Positions 27,197-38,440 of a stretch of DNA of 38,440 nucleotides are shown here, in pieces (position 1 is the first letter of the stretch; each line of letters starts with the position of its first letter). Below the pieces are notes generated by a model that saw nothing but the letters and a program-made list of their open reading frames with translations, did no database searches and was not told the origin of the DNA. This stretch comes from Stramenopiles sp. TOSAG23-2 (taxonomy: Eukaryota; Sar), in contig LT649317.1 of the NCBI GenBank assembly GCA_900128395.1, forward strand, positions 1 to 38,440, read 5' to 3'. Made by a program: the position numbers and the translations under genes.

Positions 27197-30100
27197 ATGT
27201 CAGATTCTAATAATAATAACAAGAAAAGTATTTCAATAGGAAAGAAGAAAGTCAATCCACTGCATAAATTGAAAACAGTCCGGGAGGAGGAAGAGGCGGA
27301 TACAATACAAGACCAGGTAAAAAATGATGCTTTTTTTAATAGTCTAGTAAATGAAATCCATGGAAACAATGTATATATTGCCGTCAACGCGGTATTAGAA
27401 GGCGAGATGAAAAATGAAAAAATACGTTTTATACAATCTTTAGGTCTTCCTGTAAGTGTTAAAATTTCTCCCGGAGTTGAATTGGATGAAAAATTTTGCC
27501 TTTCTACTAAAATGGCCCAATTTGATAAAGAGAAAATAAAATCATTGCAAGCAATTGGGGAAAATAATTTTGAAACAATGAAAGAAGAGGCAGTCAAACA
27601 AGCTAAAGCAAGTCCAGATCATTTTGTTCATGCTTCCATCATAGCACAGACGCTTCTATTGGAAAAACAATTTCCTTCAAAAGATAAGCTTGCTGCTGCA
27701 AAGGCTATTGGAAATTGGCATGTAGAACAGTTTGTAAAAACAATGGTTGGTTCTGATGTACAAGAAAAAGATATGGAAAAATATCGAAATGTTGTTCTTG
27801 AAGGTATTAGCGAAATGTTTCATTCTGGGGACAGTCTTAATTCATCGGGACAAGGTAATAATAATAATAGCAACAATACCAGCAACAATTTGAAGAACTC
27901 GTCGCTATCATCAACATCTCCACTTCCAGTAATATCATCTTCCTCTGCATTGCTAGATGATATATTAGAAATTAAATCAATACCAAAAAAATCTGCAAGT
28001 AATTCTATCTATGATCAAGTTTCTGGTGCGGCAATACTTATCCAATCAGTTTTCAAAGGTTATAAAGTTCGTAAAAGTATATCAAATTATCAATATAGAA
28101 AATCCAGTTTAATGTTACAAAAATGGTATAGACATACAAGATCTGGGCATGACGAAAGGGTATCGTTTCTTAAAACACGACGTGCTATTATCAAATTGCA
28201 AGCTTTGTTACGTGGGCGTAAAGTGCGTAAAGAAATAGAAATTAAAAATGATTTATTGTTGAATGAACAAATGATAGAATTATTTAATCATTTTCATAAT
28301 GCTGCTACACGAATTCAAGCTGTTATACGCGGTATAGTCATCCGCAAACGATTGCGTAAAGTGTTCGTTGCACAGCAACAAGTTAAAGCTGCGTTGTTAT
28401 ATCAAGCAAAACTACTTGGAGGCATAGTTCAATTTCAAGCTCGAGTTCGAGGATATTTGATGCGCGAATATAATAGAAAGTATAATGGCGAGATAAATCG
28501 TATGATGAAACTTCGTGTGGAATTAGAAGAAGAAGATGAAATTCTACAAGGTTTACACCGTTCTTTGGCATATTGGCATGAAGAGTCGGACCATGTAAAT
28601 GATATTGTAATCGATTTCATAACAAATAATCATTACACAAGAGCAGCAATTAAAATACAGCAACTATACCGAGATGTCAAATTACGAATTTATGCTGCGG
28701 GTATGATACAAAGTGTATGGAAAGGGTATGTAACTAGAAAACATCTTGCTTTTTGGAATGCGTATGCAACGACAATACAAAAGGTTGTAAGAGGAAGGCT
28801 GGGCAAATTGCGTTTTAAGCGTACCTTAGTATCTATGAAATTAAAAAAACGTGGAATGGCATTTCAATACTATGCAAAAAATGAAAAACAAGTTGTTATT
28901 GTACAAAACATTTATAGAAGATGGTCATGTATGAGAAATAACAAATTACTTTTGCTTATTGTTAAGGTTCAACGAACATTTCGTCGCTATCAATTTCAAA
29001 GGCAAGTTAAAACATTTATTAAAAAAGTTAGATTTGTTAAACATTTCTTAGGAATGTGTCTCATTCGAAGGAGATATCTTTCCTACAGACGCAAGATTAA
29101 AAGACGTCGTCAAGCTACAATAGTGTCATCACTGGCTCGTAAAATGTTTCAAAGAAAAAAATATTTAAACAAGCGGCAAAAAGTAATCTTAATGCAAACA
29201 TATTCAAGAAGAAAGCTGAGTTACAATCGTATAAAAAAAATGCATCGAGCGGCTACATATTTAAGTAGTTTATGGCGCTGCCATGTTATAATGGAACATT
29301 TTCAGCATCAAAAAAAAAATGCAGCTACTATCCAAAAGCAAATAAGAGGTTTTATAACGCGCATTCGCCTTTACAACAGTAAGGATTCAAAAAAAACGCA
29401 TGTTGTACAGCTTTTATATCGTCGCTTGGAAGAGGAGAAACAGCGTCCGCTGCAAGTACGAATAGATTCGGCAACAATGTTACAGTCGCATTTTCGCATG
29501 TATTTCCAACGAAATGTTTACAACTCCAAAAGAAGAAAATATATTATTATACAATCATTGGCGCGTCGTTTCCATACCTATTGCAAGATATTGCGAACAA
29601 ATCCTATTACAAAAAAAAGATATTTGTTTGATGGTACTTTTCCTGGAACGATACTCCGGAAAGGAAATGGTTCTATGACATTTGATATTTACCTTTTTGA
29701 TGGAACCTTGCTAAAAAACGTACCTCACAGGCGTATCTTGCCACTAACGCATGATAATGCTAAATTTAACGCAATAAGATTTTCTGTGGGTGATCACGTT
29801 GATGCATCGATGGAAAACGGTTTAGATAGATATCCGGGAACGATTACTAAAGCTTATCCGGGATCTGCTCATTATGACGTATTGTTTGAAGGTGATACAG
29901 TTTCAAAACAATACATACCAATAGAAAATATTTTTGCATCTTATGGACATGATGAAACTGCTGCGGAAGTCGAACACCTTCATTATAGCGTTCACGAAAG
30001 TGTTGAAACGACAAATGATCATTGGAAAACGGTTTCTCTAGCATACATTATAAATCCAAATCATAATGATGGTATAAAAAAACAAGCCAATGCTAAAGCA

Positions 30101-34921: not shown

Positions 34922-35040
34922 CACAAAAATAAGTTATGCATTAATTAACATATATTTCTCATTTATATCTGAGTCTAAAAAAGTGACTTTTCATATTTTG
35001 TTTGCCTCTCTTTCTTTCTTTGCCTCAAATTTCCATTTTT

Positions 35041-35880
35041 TTATAATTTTTGATCAAGTTTTGTTGACATTCTTGTGTTATTATTATCATCCCATTTTTG
35101 TGTTGCTGCTTCTTTTTGTGCTAGCATTGATGCTTCTTTACTAAACGTACTATTTGATTTTTTACGTATTGCATCAAAATTTCCAGCATGTTCTAATGCT
35201 CTTATTGTAGTCATAGTTGCATACATCGGGTCTCTCCCTTTGACATTATATTTTTTAAATTGTTCAGCTTGATATGTATTGACAGGCACAAATGCATCTG
35301 GTGCGTGTTTACTATTTAAATATATATCTACGACATCTGAAATATCCATCCATGCCGCTTGATACACTTCTGGGCTTACTTGCTCACGCTCATGTTTCGA
35401 CATAGTCCAAAAAGCACTATTTCTATCCATATATTTTCCCGCGAAAATCTTGCGTTTTTCCAATAATCTTTTATTTAAATCTTCCACATCAATATCATTC
35501 AACCATGGATTTTCATCTGCTAAACATACGAAATTCCACATTCTATATGATTTGCCTTGTATTACCCGCGTGGAATTGACTCGAAAAGGCCTTAAAATTG
35601 CATCTTTTGGTACGACTGTATCAAACTCTTCCGATAGTTCTCTCCGTGCTGTTTCCTCAATTGTTTCACCATCATCTTTAGACCCACCAGGTAGTTTCCA
35701 CTCACCTCCATACCTCATTAAACTAACATTATCTGGGTTTTCAGAGCGAACCCAATTTACAATTTCTGATTGTCCCAATAATACTTGCAAATTCGACTTA
35801 AACTCCCAATTGAAATCCTTCAGTTGCAAAGTGCCTTCTTTTGTTAAATTGTAATTTTTATGATTTAAAATTGTTTTATA

Positions 35881-35916
<36 letters not shown>

Positions 35917-36006
35917 TGGATTCAATCTTACTGGTACGACTGTTGCGGCATCAACTACAATTACATTTGAGTTATTATTATTGAACGATGCCATGGGTAT
36001 AAACAC
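35041..36006 (-). CDS. Nudix hydrolase-domain protein
   Basis: A 321-residue frame from ATG 36006; a second Met at codon 5 is an equally good start. After an Asn-rich N-terminus (poly-Asn from an ATT/AAT microsatellite), the Nudix domain spans about 75-225. The Nudix box reads GSKDDGE-x7-RELSEE-F-D (about 106-128). The metal-binding REUxEE core is intact, but the glycine that normally follows EEx is Asp. Upstream RYGGEWKLPGG is the usual strand before the box. The C-terminal part (about 230-321) is helical and polar. It hydrolyses a nucleoside-diphosphate-X or similar bond; the substrate cannot be told. Domain call firm, activity likely. Confidence 0.87.
35878..35916. repeat. (ATT)n microsatellite encoding poly-Asn
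   Basis: About 12 ATT units inside the Nudix gene, read as Asn codons on the minus strand. It is a likely length-variable site in the N-terminal linker, outside the catalytic domain. Confidence 0.9.
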
Positions 36007-37158
36007 TGTGTACTATAAATTAGATAAATGATAATAACGGAAGTATGACTATATATAAATTCTATACAGCGTATTGTATATCTAATTGTAATAAATATAT
36101 TACTGTATCAAATATACACGTATTGATATATCTAAGAAGAATAAGAAGTGGACAAGTGTGACCTTCTAACCTGGAACTTTGAAACTTTGAAATTTTTTTT
36201 GGCACTATACTCTAACTTGCCAGCCCAGCCAGCTGCTTGATGCATCTTGTGCTCTTCTTTGATGTGGTAAATAAAATTGATGAAAAAATATCCTTTAAGT
36301 ACAGTATAACAATACGATTATATTCTATCTATAGTGCTGTGTACCTCCTATATCCTATATCCCACATTCCCGATATGATTATTTTTACATGAAGACGACT
36401 ACTATACTAATACGAAGATGTGCATATACTGGCATACTTTTTTTTTTGATTTTTTATTTTTTCCAAAAAACTTTTAAGCAGCACTTACTTTACTTACAGT
36501 AAAACTTATTAAAAAAATTCTCTTATTAAACTAAAGTATCTTAGAATTAACAAAAATTATATGCTGAAGAAAAGTGAAAATAGTTTTTCCTGCATCATAT
36601 TAGAGAGTCATTTAATATGTGTCCTTTTTATGTTTATGTACAAGGAATAATATAAATAAAATAGGTTATCGAAAAATCTTAAAGAATTTACATCATACGA
36701 CAAAAAAAACGGGATTTTTAACCTTTTGATTAAACATTTTTTTACCACTGGGCCACACTACTCGTCGCACAGTGGTGCCACACCGATGGGAAATTTTAAT
36801 TTAAATAAAAAGTTTCCGTTTTTGTCCTTTTTTTAATATAAAAGATGGATGTTTTTTGTTAATACATATATTATATATAAGATATCTCAAGTCATAAATT
36901 TTGATTTTTAATGTTTATTTTGTTTTTTATTTTTCGGTTTAAATCAATTGACTGTCATTTAATTTTGTGTATATGTTTCATGGTCTGTATCTATTTTATT
37001 ATCTTGTGTTTTTTTTTTACTTTGTTATTATTATGAAATTTACACTTTTTATCTTTATATTTTTTTGTTTTCAGGGTCATCTTCTTTTTTATTTTATTAT
37101 TAATTTGTATACTTTTTTTTTGTTATTGTTCTGTGTGTGTGGAGACACATTTTTTTCA
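36007..37158. other. 1.15-kb spacer and 3' flank of the GST gene
   Basis: Lies between the start of the Nudix gene and the stop of the GST gene, both on the minus strand, so it contains the GST 3' UTR and the Nudix promoter. Mostly AT and homopolymer sequence. Two possible structures stand out: the GC-rich hairpin at 36744-36790 and an A/U-rich hairpin on the minus strand at about 36551-36600 (AUGAUGC...GCAUAU). I found no arrangement with AUGA, apical AA and GA at canonical SECIS spacing. The plus-strand frame at 36967-37176 is a poly(T) artefact. A TAGACGACTA-like motif is at 36392-36401. Confidence 0.5.
36744..36790 (-). other. GC-rich hairpin-forming patch in the GST 3' flank
   Basis: ACCACTG (36744-36750) and CAGTGGT (36770-36776) pair perfectly around a 19-base loop, and GCCACAC occurs twice in the patch. 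It is the only strongly GC-rich segment in more than a kilobase of AT-rich sequence, which suggests a retained structure. It could be an RNA element in the GST 3' UTR, a relic of an insertion, or a DNA-level site. It does not fit the canonical SECIS pattern. Confidence 0.45.
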
Positions 37159-38229
37159 TTAACGTGCAAATGTTAACCATTGTTGTAATCGTTCTAATTT
37201 TGATAAATGCATTTCAACAAATGCTTTAGGTGGTTCACTTAATGATGCAATACTTGGACTTGTCAATGCTAAACTTTCACGGTCACGCACTGCTTCTAAC
37301 CACACAAATAATTTCATTAAATTTAATGATCGGCAATCCTCAAAAATATCAATACTACGATGAAATGGTAAATTAGCTAACATGCGGACTACAAATGGCG
37401 CTGTTAAACATTCAGCTAATGTAAAATTATATCCGATAAAAAATGGGCCACCATCCTCGCAACCATGCATACGTAAACAATTATCAACTTTTACAAGTGC
37501 ATGTAGAAATTTCTCATAATGCTTCTTTAATTCGGTTTTTTTTTTAGCTTTCATTAATCGATAATAACCTGGAACAACATTACCCATATATAAATCAACA
37601 AATAAATCAATACGAGCAGCACTTAAAGCTTCTCTAGCATGTACGTCGCCTAAAAGACCAGGCCATGCTGGCAATAAATCTGACCCGCGATAAGGCCATG
37701 CCTTCGCGACGTATTTTGTACACACAGAGGATTCGACTAACTGTACATAATCTTTCTCCCCTGGAAATCCTACTTCTAATATTGGCACTTTCGCACTAGC
37801 TTGATGATCTGGATGAATTGTTTTATACATTATTTTAAATTCTTCAGATTTTTTTGATAAATCAACGGTTCGGCTTGTAAACGGTAATTGTTTTTCAACC
37901 ATAGCAATCCAAGGCCGTTGAGACCAAGGTCAGTCTGATGCCCCGTTCTCCGTCATGGCATTGTTCCAAAAAGTGATAGGCGGGCCGTCGTACGATATTG
38001 ATATTTCATAATCACCAGCATGTATATGATCATCAAAATGGTGCGCTTGTGGATTAATCTCGTTAACGTTATTATTATATGGTAAAAATTGTTGTTGTTG
38101 TTGTTGTTGTTGTTGTGGATTTGGTTGTTGAAATTTTTGTCCTTCATTCATCATGTCGTTTCTATTATTACTGATACTGCTACTGTTTGACGTAGTATTT
38201 GGTGATGGAATGTACAAGGATGATGACAT
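37159..38229 (-). CDS. Glutathione S-transferase, probable selenoprotein (in-frame TGA at the catalytic Cys)
   Basis: Read from ATG 38229 to TAA at 37159 as 356 codons with one in-frame TGA at 37930-37932. N-terminal residues 1-75 are Ser/Asn/Gln-rich (Q tract). Then the thioredoxin-fold domain starts with YEISISYDGPPITFWNN. After MTENGASD comes TGA, followed without frame change by PWSQRPWIAMVEK, where Cys-PW/PF-x-QR is the active-site motif of Cys-type GSTs (omega, DHAR, CLIC-like). KVPILE and LVESSVCTKYV supply the conserved glutathione-site cis-Pro and E-S. The helical C-terminal domain (about 200-330) includes GPFFIGYNFTLAECLTAPFV. A conventional caller would start at Met 37902 and lose strand 1 and the catalytic residue. 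Selenocysteine is the simplest explanation; a nonsense mutation, sequence error or unseen splicing are alternatives. TGA is a genuine stop elsewhere in this window. Confidence 0.82.
37930..37932 (-). other. In-frame TGA, candidate selenocysteine codon
   Basis: The codon between GAC (Asp) and CCT (Pro) in the GST gene. It is the only stop in 357 codons and replaces precisely the residue expected to be the catalytic cysteine of the C-P-W-x-Q-R motif. Reassignment of TGA to Trp is unlikely because other genes here end with TGA (17671-17673, 22612-22614). Confidence 0.75.
38086..38115. repeat. (TTG)n microsatellite encoding poly-Gln
   Basis: About nine CAA codons (minus strand) in the low-complexity N-terminus of the GST gene. 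Outside the folded domain and likely length-variable. Confidence 0.85.
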
Positions 38230-38440
38230 GAGGGAAAAGAAAAAACCTGTTTTAAAAGAATGCGTTTATCATACAGTATATCTATGTTTGTATATGTTTC
38301 TCGTAATTACATAACAAAGTGAACAATTTGTTTTCTGTTATTATTCTATAGAGAATAGAGAATTTAAATTTTAGACGGAAAGAAGACACTATGGATGAAA
38401 TACGCCTCTTATTTTAGCTAAAATCGGTCATGTTTTTTTG

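What the first reader, a model, noticed from the sequence alone, without database searches (positions are those of the whole stretch)
37159..38229. Probable selenocysteine GST: a TGA replaces the catalytic cysteine
Two minus-strand reading frames usually annotated apart are one gene in the same frame, split by a single TGA at 37930-37932. The codon lies between strand 1 of a thioredoxin fold (ITFWNN) and P-W-S-Q-R-P-W-I-A, exactly at the catalytic Cys of Cys-type GSTs. Coding similarity continues on both sides. TGA ends other genes here, so the code is standard. Selenoproteins in which Sec replaces a redox Cys are common in aquatic protists. I believe GST-type selenoproteins have been reported in some algae, but this lineage and the ENGASD insert before the active site may be new.
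Basis: partly seen in the sequence, partly recalled or inferred. Interest (0 to 1): 0.9.

Follow-up and report, generated by a model that had tools for sequence, protein, structure and literature searches.

The report
Selenocysteine glutathione transferase in a protist
A gene that looks cut in two by a stop codon is most likely one enzyme in which that codon inserts the rare amino acid selenocysteine at the active site; such enzymes are already known from some algae, so this is a well-supported new example rather than a new kind of thing.

Summary
Window 37159-38229 (-) is one 356-codon frame with one internal stop, TGA at 37930-37932. Read through, GST_N_2 begins at that codon; 16 of 16 bacterial loci found have TGT/TGC there, and three database relatives have Cys. 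The genome has two tRNA-Sec(tca) genes, EFsec, SepSecS, SelD, an SBP2 homolog and a PSTK-like gene; a second, 37%-identical GST with TGA at the same codon; and a GPx and an MsrA with TGA at their catalytic sites. A SECIS-like hairpin lies about 200 nt after the stop (36886-36958). A strict pattern, set after the fact, finds one such element after each GST and after GPx, none after MsrA, none in 137 kb of control DNA (both strands counted), and one in 2, 12 and 2 of 1000 shuffles. The model (pLDDT 91) puts the residue at the start of helix 1, where TDR1, DHAR and omega GSTs have their Cys. GST selenoproteins are already reported from Aureococcus, Emiliania and Mamiellales: a new member of a known kind. 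Two relatives show Trp at the site, unresolved. Translation (RNA, peptide, selenium) is untested.

The parts
37159..38229 (-). Sec-GST gene A, 356 aa when TGA is read through, stop TAA at 37159-37161
37930..37932 (-). in-frame TGA (codon 100), proposed Sec codon at the catalytic Cys position
37933..38229 (-). N-terminal 99 codons: variable Q/N-rich tail (about residues 1-70), then strand 1 'ITFWNN' and the loop 'AMTENGASD'
37159..37902 (-). C-terminal ORF as a standard gene caller gives it (247 aa; database protein P0001 is 99% identical)
36886..36958 (-). SECIS-like hairpin: AUGA quartet, 12 of the 13 bases of the 5' arm paired, unpaired AA at offset 13, 3' UGAG; about 200 nt after the stop codon

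Best explanation
The gene encodes one selenoprotein, a Cys-type (omega/DHAR/TDR1-like) glutathione transferase in which UGA at codon 100 is decoded as selenocysteine at the catalytic position. Inferred mechanism: a SECIS hairpin in the 3' UTR recruits SBP2 and EFsec, which deliver Sec-tRNA(Sec) to the UGA. The selenol, at the start of helix 1 of the thioredoxin fold, forms a selenyl-glutathione mixed bond and carries out GSH-dependent reductions (dehydroascorbate, protein-glutathione disulfides, peroxides), not classical conjugation. Shown here: the frame, the alignment to Cys, the paralog with the same TGA, the Sec machinery genes, the SECIS-like hairpins and the modelled fold. Inferred: Sec insertion, the enzyme activity and its substrates.
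For: Single in-frame TGA with domain homology crossing it. Cys codon in 16 of 16 bacterial loci found (23-40% identical, several from one genus, and Cys stood in for Sec in the query); Cys in P0002, P0009, P0016. Paralog B, 37% identical, with TGA at the same codon. GPx with TGA at the Sec site and MsrA with TGA at GCFW. tRNA-Sec twice, SepSecS (17), EFsec (27, 31), SelD (28), SBP2 (65), PSTK-like (60). Strict SECIS pattern once in each of 3 of 4 candidate 3' regions; 0 in 137,240 control bases, both strands counted and largely coding, and 0 in 16,680 bases of window intergenic DNA; 2, 12 and 2 of 1000 shuffles for A, B, GPx. Model pLDDT 90.9, site just before helix 30-41; profile hits TDR1, omega, SspA, DHAR, lambda.
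Against: The SECIS-like hairpin of gene A is weak in energy (-2.8 kcal/mol) with a very large A-rich apical loop, and a looser scan gave as good an energy in 15 of 100 shuffles for A, 8 for B, 0 for GPx and 21 for MsrA. The strict pattern was set after seeing the hits. Rfam SECIS_1 found nothing in the genome, the GPx element included. No strict element was found after MsrA. P0017 and P0021 are recorded with Trp at the site. PSTK is below the family cut-off. No RNA or peptide evidence.
Confidence: 0.92

Rival explanations
1. Pseudogene, or a sequencing or assembly error that turned a Cys codon into TGA.
For: A single base change separates TGA from TGT/TGC; relatives have Cys.
Against: No other stop in 356 codons. 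A 37%-identical paralog has TGA at the same codon. The relative P0017 is conserved on both sides of the site. The representative of cluster P0001 (45 member sequences, 20 contigs) is the 247-aa piece that starts after the TGA, and no full-length version with Cys from the same species was found; the lengths of the single members were not seen, so this is indirect.
Confidence: 0.02
2. UGA is read as tryptophan here, by reassignment or context-dependent suppression.
For: P0017 and P0021 carry W at this position; these may be TGA translated by a caller under code 4, or real TGG.
Against: TGA ends 3 of 15 window ORFs and TGG is used 110 times. Dedicated tRNA-Sec(tca) genes exist. The four TGA genes found all have it at a catalytic Cys or Sec site, not at Trp sites. 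Trp would abolish Cys-type chemistry (general knowledge).
Confidence: 0.03
3. TGA is a real stop: two separate products, or regulated termination and read-through with a near-cognate tRNA.
For: Gene callers report two ORFs; an ATG follows at 37902.
Against: Re-initiation at 37902 would give a GST without strand 1 and the catalytic residue. Homology is continuous across the codon, and the Sec machinery and hairpins would be unexplained.
Confidence: 0.02
4. An intron removes the TGA.
For: The genome appears to have introns (SepSecS matches in three pieces); P0011 has an insert at just this place.
Against: TGA is followed directly by CCT TGG (Pro-Trp) in both genes, with no AG between. Splicing out the TGA would therefore also remove conserved residues.
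Confidence: 0.01

Closest known systems
GST selenoprotein family of algae (Emiliania huxleyi, Aureococcus, Mamiellales; PMC7539508 passages and one section seen, PMC5917014 passages seen)
   Same: A GST counted as a selenoprotein, in aquatic protists with a Sec system.
   Different: Host lineage not identified here; two diverged Sec paralogs in one genome.
Thiol-dependent reductase 1 of Leishmania (PDB 4ags)
   Different: TDR1 has two GST units (two matched domains) and Cys, not Sec.
Dehydroascorbate reductases and omega GSTs (Cys-type); lambda GSTs by sequence only
   Same: C-P-[FYW] motif at strand 1/helix 1 in sequence; fold match for DHAR and omega.
   Different: Cys, not Sec; about 20-25% identity. 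Against omega 6hjs the alignment ends imply about 7 more residues between strand 1 and the Cys site here; other chains were not compared in this respect.
COG0625 GST listed among GOS marine selenoproteins (PMC2398784, one table passage seen)
   Same: Sec-containing GST in marine metagenomes.
   Different: That survey was of the marine microbial community; its sequences were not compared here.

Membership tests
Eukaryotic selenoproteins | In-frame TGA with coding homology on both sides | tested here: met
Eukaryotic selenoproteins | TGA aligns with a redox Cys in homologs | tested here: met
   16 of 16 bacterial loci TGT/TGC; P0002, P0009, P0016 Cys
Eukaryotic selenoproteins | SECIS element in the 3' UTR | tested here: inconclusive
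   A SECIS-like hairpin passes a strict pattern (2 of 1000 shuffles) but is energetically weak, passes a looser scan only at 15 of 100, and Rfam did not report it. That the region is 3' UTR is inferred.
Eukaryotic selenoproteins | Sec machinery in the genome | tested here: met
   tRNA-Sec over the family cut-off (9) and by ARAGORN (85), SepSecS (17), EFsec (27), SelD (28), SBP2 by sequence match to 7zjw (65); PSTK-like below cut-off (60)
Eukaryotic selenoproteins | Sec shown in the protein (peptide or 75Se label) | not testable with these tools
   no wet data
Cys-type GST (omega/DHAR/lambda/TDR1) | GST_N thioredoxin fold plus all-helical GST_C domain | tested here: met
Cys-type GST (omega/DHAR/lambda/TDR1) | Catalytic Cys (here Sec) at the start of helix 1 | tested here: met
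   (model made with Cys in place of Sec)
Cys-type GST (omega/DHAR/lambda/TDR1) | Thiol transferase or DHA reductase activity | not testable with these tools
   needs enzyme assay
Known algal GST selenoprotein subfamily | Orthology to the published Sec-GSTs | not tested
   published sequences not held; only text seen

The most novel reading that the evidence does not exclude
A distinct Sec-GST subfamily, DHAR/TDR1-like with a characteristic loop before the Sec and an old duplication (A and B), is widespread in uncultured protists. It would be systematically truncated in databases: 14 of the 22 relatives found begin downstream of the site.
Probability: 0.45. Interest if true: 0.55.

Novelty: new member of a known kind. 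Interest (0 to 1): 0.42.

Why it matters
It shows that sequence-only reading found what is very probably a genuine selenoprotein that standard callers split. It documents a Sec system with several candidate selenoproteins in an unidentified protist with a 17-Mb assembly. Sec at the active site of a GSH-dependent reductase would be a test case for what selenium adds to GST chemistry.

Tried and rejected
Rfam SECIS_1 over the whole genome: no match at E<=10, although a clear SECIS-like hairpin follows the GPx gene, so the family is not sensitive here. Rfam over window 35000-38440: only a sub-threshold snoRNA match. Looser SECIS scan: weak for gene A (15 of 100 shuffles), B (8) and MsrA (21), clear for GPx (0). 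MsrA 3' region (480 nt): no strict candidate. Sep15/SelM family: nothing found, and the controls did not ring either, so inconclusive. Rdx (SelW/SelT) hit on C574: no stop inside, in a 1002-aa frame. tRNA-Sec: a third match, C719, is below the cut-off; at E<=0.001 the family also rings in all 14 controls, over the cut-off in 5, so I rely on the cut-off and on ARAGORN. Viral contigs: 41 stretches matched a pattern, none a GST relative; 9 stretches matched the TGA motif pattern, and tblastn of both GSTs against them printed no match at E<=1. Weak own-genome hit C231 has no stop and covers only the C-terminal part. Taxonomy of the organism was not determined. Papers: six searches; text search found no GST in PMC2375036 or PMC6627142 and no 'methyltransferase' in PMC2746813.

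Dropped or special rows: C209 is identical to C163 over the 3711 bases compared and was counted once. P0010 and P0011 carry an insert at the site and were not counted as Cys. P0005 and P0014 lack a start Met and may simply be contig-edge fragments. P0001, P0004, P0008, P0011, P0019, P0021 and P0022 were left out of alignment A3 (15 of 22 database proteins used).

Full report
OBSERVATION. The minus strand 38229-37159 is a single frame of 356 codons with one internal stop, TGA at codon 100 (37930-37932), closed by TAA. Read through, it matches Pfam GST_N_2 at residues 100-176 (E 1.6e-8) and GST_C_5 at 206-305 (E 5.7e-7). The downstream piece alone loses the N-terminal match (E 0.11). The code looks standard: of 15 window ORFs I took as genes (the GST piece included), 9 end in TAA, 3 in TAG and 3 in TGA, and TGG is used 110 times. 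Codon bias favours the annotated frame on both sides of the TGA, only slightly in residues 71-99 taken alone.

A SECOND GENE WITH THE SAME CODON. The window's own assembly (17.45 Mb, 793 contigs) holds a paralog at C163:19470-20180, 37% identical, with TGA at the equivalent codon...THNGKSK-TGA-PWAHRAW... against ...TENGASD-TGA-PWSQRPW.... C209 carries an identical copy of the 3711 bases compared and is treated as redundant. Two diverged paralogs with TGA at the same active-site codon are hard to reconcile with error or decay.

DATABASE RELATIVES. Of 22 proteins found in three searches, 14 begin downstream of the site, as truncation at a TGA would give, though some may be contig-edge fragments (P0005 and P0014 have no start Met). 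Of the other 8, three have Cys (P0002, P0009, P0016), two have Trp (P0017, P0021), two have an insert there (P0010, P0011) and one is distant (P0022). P0017 is a close relative of gene A: 52 of 83 aligned residues identical upstream and 81 of 92 downstream, so the upstream part is protein-coding there too.

SEC MACHINERY AND OTHER SELENOPROTEIN GENES. tRNA-Sec: two identical copies on C227, 64.4 bits against a cut-off of 47, called tRNA-SeC(tca) by ARAGORN. SepSecS in three exon-like pieces (best 1.0e-63). EFsec domain III (4.4e-27) in a 622-aa frame. SelD (283 bits), fused to an N-terminal oxidoreductase-like part (my reading of the sequence) and without a TGA. An SBP2 homolog (2.7e-22 to SBP2 of PDB 7zjw). 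A PSTK-like gene (98 bits, below the family cut-off of 382). GPx has TGA at its Sec site, NVARL-TGA-DVQE. One MsrA has TGA in place of the Cys of GCFW, while the three other matches, one of them weak, keep Cys.

SECIS. No Rfam SECIS was found anywhere in the genome. A search for the core anatomy (AUGA quartet, unpaired AA 12-14 nt further on, at least 12 bases of the 5' arm paired, GA on the 3' side) gave exactly one element 3' of gene A (36958-36886), one 3' of gene B and one 3' of GPx, none 3' of MsrA, none in 137,240 bases of other DNA from the same genome (both strands counted, much of it coding), and none in 16,680 bases of window intergenic DNA. In dinucleotide shuffles the pattern appeared in 2, 12 and 2 of 1000 for A, B and GPx. 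Caveats: the strict thresholds were set after seeing these hits; a looser scan matched by energy gave 15, 8, 0 and 21 of 100 shuffles for A, B, GPx and MsrA; the gene A hairpin is weak (-2.8 kcal/mol) with a large A-rich loop. Its two-part helix with a larger 3' bulge resembles the strong GPx element. I call it probable, not proven.

ALTERNATIVES. An intron that removes the TGA would also remove the conserved Pro-Trp, since no AG lies between. Error or pseudogene is opposed by the paralog, by the otherwise open frame, and indirectly by cluster P0001 (45 member sequences), whose representative starts after the TGA. Trp reassignment is opposed by TGA stops, by tRNA-Sec, and by the four TGA genes found all having TGA at redox sites.

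FUNCTION (inferred). By its relatives this is a Cys-type GST, a group known (general knowledge) for GSH-dependent thiol transfer and dehydroascorbate reduction; Sec should give a more reactive nucleophile. No substrate is known.

NOVELTY. GST selenoproteins are in print: PMC7539508 (passages and the composition section seen: GST among the algal selenoprotein families, a GST-MSRA fusion in E. huxleyi, a GST-DsbA cluster in Mamiellales), PMC5917014 (passages seen: GST as an Aureococcus selenoprotein gene), PMC2398784 (table passage seen: GST among GOS selenoproteins). The present gene is a new member, in an organism I could not name. Whether it is orthologous to the published ones is untested.

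Noticed in passing
L040 (G000:C113 around 29251-29529), frame of about 1028 aa: The SBP2 homolog is in one frame with a C-terminal METTL21-type lysine methyltransferase domain (Methyltransf_16, 6.5e-25; residues 837-998), with a PAM2 match between. One paper search did not bring up such a fusion.
   Followed up: partly
L001 1501-1586 and 1680-1765 (G000:C227): Two identical tRNA-Sec genes in tandem, 179 bp from start to start, inside a duplicated stretch.
   Followed up: partly
L035 (G000:C36:28646-29056): MsrA with TGA at the catalytic Cys (GAG-TGA-FW), but no strict SECIS pattern in the 480 nt downstream.
   Followed up: partly
L013 (G000:C587): SelD in one 846-aa frame with an N-terminal oxidoreductase-like part, with Cys and not Sec in 'MRCGGCGSK'.
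   Followed up: no
P0010 and P0011 (database proteins): Relatives with what looks like an unspliced intron exactly at the catalytic codon, leaving Cys or Sec undecided there.
   Followed up: no
G000:C163 and C209: Two contigs identical over the 3711 bases compared, at the same coordinates: redundancy in the assembly.
   Followed up: no
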